A DNA stretch of 33,020 nt, from NCBI GenBank assembly GCA_016124805.1, contig WGND01000002.1:80594-113613 (forward strand). The letters are read 5' to 3'. A program made the translations under genes and the position numbers. The notes under the pieces were generated by a model. The model was given only the letters and a program-made list of their open reading frames with translations, was not told where the DNA came from and did no database searches. This stretch comes from Hyphomicrobiales bacterium. Lineage in GTDB: Bacteria; Pseudomonadota; Alphaproteobacteria; Parvibaculales; Parvibaculaceae. Position 1 is the first letter of the stretch, and each line of letters opens with the position of its first letter. Shown here piece by piece: positions 29,667 to 33,020 of this stretch.

Positions 29667-30938
29667 TCAGGCTTTTTCGCGCCAGATCTCGGCACCGCAG
29701 GCGCTGAGCTTGGCTTCGATGCGCTCAAAGCCGCGATCGAGATGATAGACGCGATTGATGATTGTTTCGCCCTCGGCGGCAAGGGCAGCAATGATGAGCG
29801 CGGCAGAGGCGCGCAGATCGCTTGCCATGACGGGGGCGCCTTTGAGCACCTCCACACCGCGCACCAGCGCCTTGTCGCCATGCAGCGAAATATCGGCACC
29901 GAAGCGGGCCAGCTCCTGCACATGCATGAATCGGTTTTCAAAAATCGTCTCGGTGATTTCGGACTCGCCTTCCGCCATGGTCATCAGCGCCATGAACTGG
30001 GCCTGCAGATCGGTCGGGAAGCCGGGGAAAACCTGTGTGACAACATCGGTTGCCTGCAGCCGCGCGCCATTGCGCATGACACGGACCGAGCCTTGCGGCG
30101 TTTCAACTTCGGCCCCGGCAGCGCGCAGCACGGAAAGAGCGGCCTCGAAGGTTTCGCCTTCAACGCCTTCCAGCGTGACATCGCCCCCCGTCATGGCGGC
30201 GGCAATGGCATAGGTGCCCGCTTCGATGCGGTCAGCAATCACGTTATAGGTCGCGCCATGCAGCTTCTCGACGCCCTCGATACGCAGGGTCGAGGTGCCG
30301 ATGCCGGTGATCTTCGCGCCCATCGCCACGAGGCAATGGGCAAGATCGGTAACTTCGGGCTCGCGGGCGGCATTTTCCAGCACGGTTTCGCCATCGGCCA
30401 GCGTTGCTGCCATCATCAGTGTATGCGTGGCCCCGACCGAGACCATGGGCGAGCGGATGACCGCGCCTTTGAGGCCGCCCGGCGCATTGGCCACGACATA
30501 GCCATCCACGAGATCGATCTCGGCGCCCATTTTCTGGAGGCCCTTGATATAGAGGTCCACAGGGCGGGCACCGATGGCGCAGCCCCCGGGCAGCGAGACG
30601 CGCGCATAATGGCAGCGCGTCAGCAGGGGCCCGAGCACCCAGAAGCTTGCCCGAATCTGCGACACGATTTCATAGGGTGCGGTGGTGGAAAGGATTTCCG
30701 GCGTGGTCAGTGTCAGCGTGTCGGCGTGATCGTCGGAGGCACGCGTGATGACCGTGCCGAGCACCCCCAGCAGCTTGGTGAGCGTGCGAATGTCGGTGAG
30801 GCGGGGCACATTGCCAAGGCGCAAGGGCTCCCCGGTCAGCAGGGCTGCCGTGAGCAGCGGCAAAGCGGCATTTTTGGCGCCGCTGATCTGGATCGAACCG
30901 TTGAGGCGATTGCCGCCGCGAATGTGAATTGTGTCCAT
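29667..30938 (-). CDS. murA: UDP-N-acetylglucosamine 1-carboxyvinyltransferase
   Basis: A 423-residue cytosolic enzyme for the first committed step of peptidoglycan synthesis (enolpyruvyl transfer from PEP to UDP-GlcNAc). Lys22 in SGAKNAALP and the catalytic Cys120 in [13 protein letters not shown] are present; the cysteine predicts fosfomycin sensitivity of the enzyme. The ATG at 30938 has only AGGA about 13 bases upstream, and a 3 x 14 bp tandem repeat begins 15 bases upstream of it. First gene of the murA-DUF2948-hisD run. Confidence 0.97.
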
Positions 30939-30952
30939 GGTGTCCGGGCTTT

Positions 30953-30994
30953 CCTGCCGCTTTGGGCCTGCCGCTTTGGGCCTGCCGCTTTGGG
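30953..30994. repeat. 3 x 14 bp perfect tandem repeat in the murA leader
   Basis: CCTGCCGCTTTGGG occurs three times back to back (30953-30966, 30967-30980, 30981-30994) without mismatch. Read on the minus strand it is upstream of murA, and the weak AGGA of murA lies at its edge. A non-coding unit of 14 bp can change copy number by slippage. Confidence 0.95.
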
Positions 30995-31321: not shown

Positions 31322-31544
31322 GGCGCATTTCTCTCATTCAGGGCATTCGCGGGCAATTGTGATGAGATTTAGGGTCGCCACGCGCATTCCGTCAATAAGG
31401 GATTGAGAAGAGAGGCAATTTGGCGGCTCTGCCCCGCATTGACGGCTTGCACCATGGGGAGGGCTGTGGCAACTTCCGCCCGCTCGCGAGAGGCCAATGG
31501 CCTTCCCGTCTGATCAGACCCCGAGCCGGGCCGAACGCCCCGAT

Positions 31545-31619
<75 letters not shown>

Positions 31620-31782
31620 TTTTCTGTAGACATTATCAAGAAATCACTAAATGGCGCTTCTTTGATGCCATATCTTGTAAACTCATGACCCGTAATTCAA
31701 AGGCCATATTTCTTGAAGTACAGTATTGATTCAGAAAATTTCATGATGAATTTCGACAACTGAAAAATTATTTGAGCAAAAC

Positions 31783-32268
31783 ATGCCACTTAGATTTTTA
31801 ATTGAAATTTTTACTGCATTAGCTGCTTTTTGGGGGGCAGGCCTTAGTACTTATTTGGCTTGGAAAAACTGGCAGCTCACTCGCCCTGAAGTTCGGCTGG
31901 AAATATCAAATGCTGACCCCAACCGATTGAAACTGTTTGTAACCAATCGATCTTCGGAGAGCATAATTGTGGAATCTGTAAGAGCCGCCAAGGACAATAT
32001 ATGCGATGTCCGCGCCATTTACCCTGAGAACGACACCACGCTTAGAACTATTCGTCGTGTTGTTGGTGGAGATGATCGATTTCATCTGCGTTGTGATCCT
32101 GGAGAACAAGTCTCGATAGAAATATTAGTGGAGCAGGAAAACTTCTTTTCACTATCAGTGAATGTTGGTTGGTATTTCGAAACAAGGAGACTTCGTGAGC
32201 ACCGAACGGTTAGGGCTCGTTGGTCTATTGATGACATCAGCATGCGACGCCGAGCAATTCAAGAATGA
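31783..32268 (+). CDS. Unknown membrane-anchored protein of the tRNA-Thr insertion
   Basis: A 161-residue protein with one N-terminal transmembrane helix (about residues 5-26, FLIEIFTALAAFWGAGLSTYL as key hydrophobic stretch) and then a soluble part that looks beta-rich (VRLEISNADPNRLKLFVTN, SIIVESVRAAK). Only two cysteines, no catalytic motif recognised. Codon use is AT-rich, unlike every neighbour. The ATG at 31783 has no clear Shine-Dalgarno, so translation may be weak or start elsewhere. It is the only gene of the element; cargo such as defence, exclusion or toxin-type function is possible but not shown. Confidence 0.6.
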   Translation: MPLRFLIEIFTALAAFWGAGLSTYLAWKNWQLTRPEVRLEISNADPNRLKLFVTNRSSESIIVESVRAAKDNICDVRAIYPENDTTLRTIRRVVGGDDRFHLRCDPGEQVSIEILVEQENFFSLSVNVGWYFETRRLREHRTVRARWSIDDISMRRRAIQE

Positions 32269-32321
32269 GCGCTAACGTGGTGAACAACACAAGAAGATGT
32301 GCGCCCCATTCTTCCGGCATC

Positions 32322-32349
32322 CAATCCTCTCCAACAGCACCATTTTCTG
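32322..32349 (+). repeat. Right direct repeat (att-like)
   Basis: A second, perfect 28-base copy of 31599-31626, lying 41 bases before the start of the RNA methyltransferase gene. No tRNA sequence precedes it, so it marks the far junction of the insertion. Confidence 0.97.
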
Positions 32350-32356
32350 CGACAAT

Positions 32357-32387
32357 GGCTCGCGACCACCCTTTTTCCTCGTGAGCC
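32357..32387 (+). promoter_or_regulatory. Hairpin covering the start region of the RNA methyltransferase gene
   Basis: GGCTCGCGA (32357-32365) pairs with TCGTGAGCC (32379-32387), nine pairs with one G-T, around a 13-base loop with CTTTTT. Its 3' arm ends three bases before the ATG at 32391 and includes the only GAG that could bind the ribosome, so it may limit initiation or end tRNA-Thr transcripts. Confidence 0.35.
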
Positions 32388-32390
32388 CTG

Positions 32391-33020
32391 ATGTCCCAGC
32401 CCTCTTCCTTTCTACGCGTGATCGAGAGCCCGCAAAATCCCCATGCGCGGATTTGGCTGGCGCTGGATGACGGGCGCGGGCTGAAGAAGCACAAGCGTTT
32501 CCTCCTGTCGGGTCGCAAAAGCGTGCCCGAAGCGCTGCGTGAGCGGCCGGGCATGTTTGAATCCCTGCTGGTGACGCGGCCTGAGGATATTGAGGGCTGG
32601 GCGCTGCCCGAGGGGCTTGATGTGTTCCGGCTGTCGACGCCGCTTTTCCAATCGCTTGACCACGCGGGCACAGGCTTTCCGCTGCTGGTGGGGCGGGTGC
32701 CGGAACTGGTGCGGGCCGATCTTGCCACGCCACCGCAGGGGCTGGAACTTATCTGCGCGCTCGGGGACCCGGCCAATCTCGGCGCGCTGATGCGCAGTGC
32801 GGCGGCCTTTGGCGTCTCACGCGTGATCCTGATGGAAGATGCCGCGCACCCCTTCCACCCCAAGGCGATGCGGGCCGGTGCCAATGCGCAATTTGCCCTG
32901 CGGCTGGAGCGCGGCCCCGGCTGGGACATGCTCGGCGCGGCGGCGGGCCCCATTTTCGCGCTGGATGGCGCGGGTGAAAATCTCGATGGCTTTGCCTTTC
33001 CGGCTTCGATGCGGTTGATC
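32391..33020 (+). CDS. TrmH-family (SPOUT) RNA methyltransferase, 3' end cut by window
   Basis: The first 210 codons of a SpoU/TrmH-type 2'-O-ribose methyltransferase acting on tRNA or rRNA with S-adenosylmethionine. The N-terminal part (about 1-105) is a substrate-binding domain with LLSGRKSVPEAL, as in RlmB/TsnR relatives. SPOUT motif 1, NLGALMRSAAAFGV (129-142, Asn129 and Arg135), opens the catalytic knot domain, and motifs 2 and 3 lie beyond the window. The frame is open to the last base. Before the insertion it would have followed tRNA-Thr by about 70 bases. Confidence 0.88.
   Translation, partial: MSQPSSFLRVIESPQNPHARIWLALDDGRGLKKHKRFLLSGRKSVPEALRERPGMFESLLVTRPEDIEGWALPEGLDVFRLSTPLFQSLDHAGTGFPLLVGRVPELVRADLATPPQGLELICALGDPANLGALMRSAAAFGVSRVILMEDAAHPFHPKAMRAGANAQFALRLERGPGWDMLGAAAGPIFALDGAGENLDGFAFPASMRLI

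What the first reader, a model, noticed from the sequence alone, without database searches (positions are those of the whole stretch)
31599..32349. Minimal tRNA-Thr-integrated element flanked by perfect 28-bp repeats, no integrase
Seen: the tRNA-Thr 3' end plus 7 bases is repeated exactly 723 bp downstream, the flanks of both copies differ, and the DNA between is AT-rich with one ORF. Known: integrases of islands and satellites use tRNA 3' ends and leave such repeats. Inference: this is one of the smallest possible integrative units, carrying a single cargo gene and depending on a recombinase elsewhere, or it is a remnant.
Basis: partly seen in the sequence, partly recalled or inferred. Interest (0 to 1): 0.8.

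Follow-up and report, generated by a model that had tools for sequence, protein, structure and literature searches.

The report
Single-gene insertion at a tRNA-Thr gene
A short stretch of foreign-looking DNA with one unknown gene sits between two identical copies of the end of a tRNA gene, the usual scar of an integrated mobile element, but no enzyme to move it was found in it; such tiny passengers are known elsewhere, and relatives carry other genes at the same spot.

Summary
In detail: 28 bp (last 21 nt of tRNA-Thr(GGT) plus 7 flanking nt) recur exactly 723 bp downstream. The DNA between is 42% GC (window about 59%) and holds one 161-codon orphan ORF; no recombinase was recognised. The ORF is absent from 39 of 39 family relatives, and in 22 same-genus genomes (Parvibaculum, inferred) the tRNA-Thr to trmH spacer varies from about 0.1 to 6.8 kb. 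G002 has a different 1.76-kb single-ORF insertion 12 bp after the tRNA. G036, of a sister genus, is a close parallel: a 47-bp exact repeat of the same tRNA 3' part around 1.2 kb of AT-richer DNA with one other orphan ORF and no tyrosine integrase found on that contig. Eleven viral contigs carry the 3' half of this tRNA outside any tRNA called there; the seven neighbouring ORFs scanned are all tyrosine integrases. So site-specific insertion is likely (about 0.85). Whether the unit moves in trans or is the remnant of a larger element is open; I lean to trans. Additive islands of 330 bp-42 kb beside repeats of a tRNA 3' end are published: a new member of a known kind.

The parts
31545..31619 (+). 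tRNA-Thr (anticodon GGT), intact, ends in CCA; host of the attachment site
   Evidence: ARAGORN; Rfam RF00005
31599..31626 (+). Repeat copy 1 (tRNA-proximal att): last 21 nt of the tRNA (from the T-loop) + TTTTCTG
   Evidence: exact repeat
31627..31782 (.). AT-rich non-coding left end of the insert (GC 0.32)
   Evidence: no promoter-like or terminator-like site found in 31500-32450
31783..32268 (+). Single cargo ORF, 161 aa, orphan; hydrophobic N-terminal helix (possible membrane anchor, just under a usual threshold), then predicted strands at low confidence
   Evidence: no significant hit in Pfam, PADLOC, PHROGs, NCBIfam; AF2 mean pLDDT 53; hydropathy maximum 1.55 at residue 3; GC1/2/3 = 0.53/0.44/0.36
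32269..32321 (.). Non-coding right end of the insert (GC 0.55)
32322..32349 (+). Repeat copy 2 (distal att), identical to copy 1
   Evidence: exact repeat
32391..33020 (+). Context: TrmH/SpoU-family RNA methyltransferase (cut by the contig end), right neighbour of the site in 22 same-genus loci
   Evidence: Pfam PF00588 8.6e-11; synteny
29667..30938 (-). Context: MurA-like gene (EPSP-synthase family), left neighbour of the site in 22 same-genus loci
   Evidence: Pfam PF00275 2.3e-108; synteny

Best explanation
A tyrosine integrase inserted a roughly 0.7-kb DNA circle carrying one gene into the 3' end of the tRNA-Thr(GGT) gene, restoring the tRNA and leaving the displaced host 3' end as the distal 28-bp copy. 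No recombinase was recognised in the insert, so entry and any exit would depend on an integrase supplied in trans, for example by a temperate phage or island that uses the same tRNA. It is a single-gene passenger in a variable site between tRNA-Thr and trmH. Shown: the repeat, unusual composition, absence of the ORF from relatives, variability of the site, a parallel case in G036, and viral contigs with integrases beside this tRNA end. Inferred: integrase action (about 0.85), movement in trans, and any function of the gene.
For: Exact repeat at a tRNA 3' end. Low GC. ORF in 0 of 39 family relatives, 0 of 384 other class genomes drawn, no significant hit among 397 other phylum genomes drawn or in plasmids, phages, viral and named genome collections (the last two scans reach close relatives only). 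tRNA-trmH spacer varies in 22 of 23 same-genus loci fetched (the 23rd contig ends first). G002: 1.76-kb single-ORF insertion at +12 after the tRNA relative to G012 and G021. G024: imperfect 35-nt repeat of the tRNA end at +269 around a tiny gene. G036: 47-bp exact repeat, 1203 bp between, one main ORF, paired 8-9-mers at 11-bp spacing right of copy 1 and on both sides of copy 2, none of the 5 PF00589 matches of that genome on that contig. Viral contigs: 11 of 17 with the exact 21-mer carry it as a 3' part where no tRNA is called; ORFs beside 7 of these 11 were scanned and 7 of 7 are PF00589. No recombinase family among 72 ORFs from relatives' spacers.
Against: No arm-type pairs were found in the window's insert. 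The arm reading of the G036 pairs rests on geometry only: the same exact pair occurs in 26 viral contigs, none with this tRNA end, and a nearby integrase was found in only 1 of 26 (L229; 43 ORFs from 25 contigs scanned; others match Thy1 or T7-like phage genes). The viral and G036 blocks start in the anticodon arm, whereas the window's starts in the T-loop and runs 7 nt past CCA, which none of the 17 viral matches does (0-3 nt): these integrases are probably not the one that acted here. The 26-mer with flank and the G036 core 23-mer have no exact viral match. No integrase for this site was found in the own genome. G002 has no second repeat. No near relative with a clean empty site was found. 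Much spacer variation in other Parvibaculum is ordinary genes (beta-lactamase family, YhhN).
Confidence: 0.47

Rival explanations
1. Remnant: a larger prophage or island integrated at tRNA-Thr by its own integrase, then internal deletion removed the integrase and the rest, leaving both att copies and one gene.
For: A usual fate of islands (established knowledge). In G036, phage-like genes (tail protein; phrog_1544) lie just beyond the distal repeat. No arm sites were found in the window's insert. A 6.7-kb stretch beside a partial tRNA-Thr copy without integrase nearby was read as a remnant in Haloquadratum (PMC3119063, passage read).
Against: The one ORF is intact and fills most of the insert; no integrase or phage family was recognised in it; the two att copies are identical; G036 shows the same single-gene layout.
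Confidence: 0.38
2. Not a recombinase: foreign DNA was captured during break repair or transposition and the 28-bp repeat is a fill-in duplication of the target.
For: No recombinase and no arm sites were found; G002 shows an insertion at nearly the same place without repeats.
Against: The duplicated block is the tRNA 3' end, where integrases act; 28 bp is long for a target duplication (recalled); G036 repeats the pattern at the same tRNA with 47 bp.
Confidence: 0.1
3. Assembly or binning artefact joining unrelated DNA at a short repeat near the contig end.
For: The contig ends 671 bp after the second copy; the genome is in 20 contigs.
Against: A 28-bp repeat is shorter than common read lengths (established knowledge); trmH follows in the gene order shared by the genus; completeness 99.76, contamination 0.07.
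Confidence: 0.03

Closest known systems
Additive flexible genomic island (fGI-2) of Ca. [quoted passage not shown] passages read)
   Same: Direct repeats of a tRNA 3' end; size range includes very small units (330 bp-42 kb, 1-63 CDS); 79-80% of proteins of unknown function; variable content
   Different: There many strains are compared and the repeats come in varying number; here one pair of copies, one gene, one genome, tRNA-Thr, Alphaproteobacteria
Tycheposons (as described in passages of PMC10872708; the original paper was not read)
   Same: tRNA-adjacent cargo DNA
   Different: Described as 4-200 kbp cargo carriers; the Methylophilaceae ones hold a tyrosine recombinase; none found here
Viral contigs with a tRNA-Thr(GGT) 3'-half next to integrases (L212-L221, L226)
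   Same: Same tRNA end; tyrosine integrases in the 7 neighbouring ORFs scanned
   Different: Phage-like contigs; block reaches into the anticodon arm and stops 0-1 nt after CCA, unlike the window's T-loop to +7 block
Haloquadratum walsbyi 6.7-kb region beside a partial tRNA-Thr1 copy (PMC3119063; passage read)
   Same: Partial tRNA-Thr copy, hypothetical genes between, no integrase nearby
   Different: Archaeal, imperfect copy (5 mismatches over 57 nt), many pseudogenes, read by its authors as a remnant

Membership tests
Additive flexible genomic island (tRNA-repeat type) | Direct repeat of the tRNA 3' end at the insert | tested here: met
   28/28 exact
Additive flexible genomic island (tRNA-repeat type) | Variable content at the same site between relatives | tested here: met
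   22 same-genus spacers differ in length; ORF absent in 39 of 39 family relatives; part of the content is ordinary chromosomal genes. Relatives are other species, not strains
Additive flexible genomic island (tRNA-repeat type) | Growth of the island by successive insertions at the same site | tested here: inconclusive
   Only one unit here; G036 has phage-like genes and a further repeat pair beyond its distal tRNA copy
Autonomous integrative element / genomic island with integrase | Own integrase gene inside the element | tested here: not met
   One main ORF, no significant Pfam match
Autonomous integrative element / genomic island with integrase | att core with arm-type sites | tested here: inconclusive
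   No 9-mer pair (8 of 9 matching, spacing 9-13) near the ends of the insert; other arm designs are not excluded
Tycheposon | Tyrosine recombinase and 4-200 kb of cargo | tested here: not met
   0.7 kb, no recombinase found; definition as quoted in PMC10872708
Phage satellite | Satellite regulatory or packaging genes | tested here: not met
   No PHROG match of the one ORF
Trans-mobilised element | Excision by a helper integrase | not testable with these tools
   Needs reads or PCR for a 723-bp circle

The most novel reading that the evidence does not exclude
Parvibaculaceae carry a population of recombinase-free, single-gene circles that share the attachment end of tRNA-Thr and are moved by whatever phage integrase recognises it, a gene-cassette system that uses a tRNA gene in place of an integron site. 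The window's 723-bp unit and the 1250-bp unit of G036 would be two members with unrelated cargo.
Probability: 0.22. Interest if true: 0.65.

Novelty: new member of a known kind. Interest (0 to 1): 0.37.

Why it matters
If moved in trans, units this small would let single genes without known relatives spread on borrowed phage machinery, and island finders that look for an integrase would miss them. The locus gives a defined test: a 723-bp circle and a predicted empty site. If it is a remnant, it is an ordinary scar of past integration, useful mainly as a mark of a variable tRNA-Thr site.

Tried and rejected
Intron in tRNA-Thr of G017 (my note): the split match is a run of N in the assembly; rejected. 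An 18-bp match of the repeat beside an integrase match on C12 lies inside that ORF, XerC-like by its neighbours (name recalled); taken as chance. A 16-bp match in L079 was only printed. CAAGAA as an arm motif of the window's insert: 4 copies, but a 6-mer with 3 or more copies in the non-coding flanks is usual in shuffles; rejected. TTGGACACG pair as a general mark of integrase arms: 26 viral contigs have it, 0 with this tRNA end, 1 with an integrase among the nearby ORFs scanned; this counts against that general reading, and for this I moved my odds from 0.50 to 0.47 (trans), 0.35 to 0.38 (remnant) and 0.25 to 0.22 (novel case). Weak phylum hits of the ORF (18 other genomes at E 0.004-0.1 of 398 searched): three looked at (L193-L195); they fall opposite a response-regulator-like ORF, across stop codons, or inside an unrelated ORF; 15 were not looked at. 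Fold search was not run because the model is poor. A 26-nt degenerate repeat in G012 at +3381 lies at the end of a 1.75-kb insertion bounded by imperfect repeats (93% over 81 bp); weak, not used. The trmH scan of named genomes gave 80 loci; tRNA-Thr upstream of trmH was found in 19 of the 77 examined (L113-L189), with spacers equal to ones already seen in the unnamed set and no new one; L190-L192 were not examined. The Pfam scan of spacer ORFs used 72 ORFs of 85 aa or more from a greedy choice in 22 genomes; shorter ORFs were dropped. The PF00589 list for the genus was cut by the tool; no listed place falls in a tRNA-Thr to trmH spacer.

Full report
What is there. The window is G000:C1:80594-113613 of a 3.21-Mb genome in 20 contigs. 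tRNA-Thr(GGT) lies at 31545-31619. Its last 21 nt plus TTTTCTG form a 28-bp block that recurs exactly at 32322-32349, 723 bp on. The bases beyond the block differ on both sides. Between the copies lie 695 bp with GC 0.424, lower than each of 617 other 695-bp stretches sampled in the window (0.495-0.649, mean 0.587). One main ORF, 31783-32268, encodes 161 aa. Its codon-position GC (0.53/0.44/0.36) fits an AT-richer donor (inference), and an open frame of its length is rare in resampled DNA of the same make-up (11 of 2000).

The gene. No significant Pfam, PADLOC, PHROGs or NCBIfam match (one Pfam line at E 0.21, far under its cut-off). It is absent from 39 of 39 other family genomes (one search repeats the same set) and 384 of 384 other class genomes drawn. 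Among 397 other phylum genomes drawn, 18 had matches at E 0.004-0.1, of which the three looked at are taken as chance. No match in plasmids, phages, viral contigs or named genomes. The insert's DNA has no relative in plasmids or phages. The single-sequence model is poor (mean pLDDT 53): a helix over residues 3-32, then strands. The N-terminal stretch is hydrophobic (19-residue mean 1.55), so a membrane anchor is plausible but not shown.

The site in relatives. Named contigs of the same lengths as unnamed ones place the genus as Parvibaculum (inference). In one search, 23 of 26 same-genus genomes had a tRNA-Thr match. In 22 of the 23 loci fetched, a MurA-like gene, tRNA-Thr and trmH stand in the same order; the contig of the 23rd ends too early. 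The distance from tRNA-Thr to the start of the BLAST match in trmH runs from 116 bp (G003; its trmH starts at 97 bp) to 6763 bp (G004). In the window it is 771 bp, or 48 bp without the insert. The spacers hold various genes, often a beta-lactamase-family hydrolase and a YhhN protein, so much of the variation is ordinary gene content. No recombinase family was seen among 72 ORFs scanned.

Comparable insertions. G002 differs from G012 and G021 by about 1.76 kb starting 12 bp after tRNA-Thr, with one 504-aa ORF of no known family and no second repeat. G024 has a 35-nt, 91% repeat of its tRNA end at +269 around a tiny gene that five other Parvibaculum genomes also carry. The best parallel is G036 of a sister genus (L202): a 47-bp exact repeat of the tRNA-Thr 3' part 1250 bp downstream, 1203 bp between (GC 0.495) and one main ORF of 264 aa with two hydrophobic segments and no Pfam or PHROG match. 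Pairs of 8-9-mers at 11-bp spacing lie right of copy 1 (1725/1736), left of copy 2 (2745/2756) and right of copy 2 (2965/2976). A stricter form of the pair occurs nowhere else in the 2.07 Mb held at that time (overlapping G036 loci counted as one). They look like integrase arm sites by position, but the viral scan does not back this as a general rule: of 26 viral contigs with the exact pair, none has this tRNA end and one has an integrase among the nearby ORFs scanned. None of the five PF00589 matches of G036 is on this contig. Beyond copy 2 lie a tail-protein-like ORF and a phrog_1544 ORF, so phage-like DNA abuts the unit. Of the 11 loci from other genera of the family that were checked for a repeat of the tRNA end in the next 6 kb (or to the contig end), only G036 gave a strong one.

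Who could move it. The own genome has eight PF00589 matches. The stretches around all eight contain no copy of the 28-mer and one tRNA gene, tRNA-Ala. Serine integrases were not searched for. In viral contigs the exact 26-mer with flank is absent, as is a 23-nt G036 core, but the 21-nt tRNA end occurs in 17. In 6 it is part of a called tRNA-Thr; in 11 it is a 3' part with no tRNA called there. ORFs beside 7 of these 11 were scanned and all seven are tyrosine integrases. Their shared block reaches 27-30 nt further into the tRNA (one mismatch allowed), to the anticodon arm, and stops 0-1 nt after CCA, like that of G036. The window's block begins in the T-loop and runs 7 nt past CCA, so a different integrase or crossover position is needed. 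That tRNA-targeting integrases differ in where in the tRNA they cross over is recalled, not looked up.

Judgement. Integration at the tRNA 3' end by a site-specific recombinase is the best reading (about 0.85). That the unit is a recombinase-free passenger moved in trans is my preferred mechanism (0.47): intact single gene, identical att copies, no recognised phage or integrase debris, and a like unit in G036. A remnant left by internal deletion is close behind (0.38), since the window's insert shows no arm sites and G036 has phage-like genes next door. Target duplication during break repair (0.1) and artefact (0.03) remain. The first two odds were 0.50 and 0.35 before the viral check of the arm-like pair.

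Known or new. Published additive islands beside repeats of the last 20 nt of tRNA-Lys range from 330 bp and 1 CDS upward, with 79-80% unknown proteins (PMC10872708, passages). The present unit is therefore a new member of a known kind. A search for integrase, tRNA-Thr and Parvibaculum together gave 0 papers; the listed parts showed no paper on this locus, though most hits of the wider searches were not listed.

Noticed in passing
L106 (own genome, C19:1633-1719, tRNA-Ser(TGA)): 18-bp exact repeat of the tRNA-Ser 3' end about 128 bp downstream, beyond a hairpin-like sequence: a second possible tRNA scar in this genome.
   Followed up: partly
L202:1549-5204 (G036, sister genus): 47-bp exact tRNA-Thr repeat around a single-ORF unit without a recognised integrase, with paired 9-mers, next to phage-like genes; clearer than the window's own case.
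   Followed up: yes
L202:12148-13919 (G036): A reverse-transcriptase-family ORF (PF00078) beside an ORF that looks like a nucleotidyltransferase-HEPN fusion (second name recalled, not tested): possible defence pair.
   Followed up: no
L050:2152-3186 (G006): Low-GC3 345-aa ORF with weak TIR and nucleoside deoxyribosyltransferase matches in the tRNA-Thr to trmH spacer.
   Followed up: partly
L035 (G012), about 1.75 kb between +1658 and +3406 after tRNA-Thr: Insertion with a transglycosylase-domain ORF between imperfect direct repeats (93% over 81 bp) at the 3' end of the beta-lactamase-family gene; neither of its two ORFs scanned is a recombinase.
   Followed up: partly
L211, L225, L227 against L222-L224 (viral contigs with tRNA arrays): A 361-aa ORF lies just after tRNA-Thr in three contigs (next tRNA, Arg, about 1.1 kb on), where the other three have tRNA-Arg about 11 bp after tRNA-Thr: an insertion at a tRNA-Thr end inside phage tRNA arrays.
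   Followed up: no
L229:1364-2640 (viral contig): Two TTGGACACG pairs in a row within about 45 bp of a tyrosine integrase ORF; in other viral contigs with the pair, nearby ORFs often match Thy1 or T7-like genes.
   Followed up: no
window 30953-30994: 14-bp tandem repeat (CCTGCCGCTTTGGG) upstream of the MurA-like gene; the only other exactly repeated 28-mer in the window.
   Followed up: no
L042, about 90-240 bp after tRNA-Thr (G024; also G005, G009, G017, G023, G025): Very small ORF with a signal-like start and an HGGGCRKSSPPGQCCHMDN..HCH ending after tRNA-Thr in six Parvibaculum genomes.
   Followed up: no
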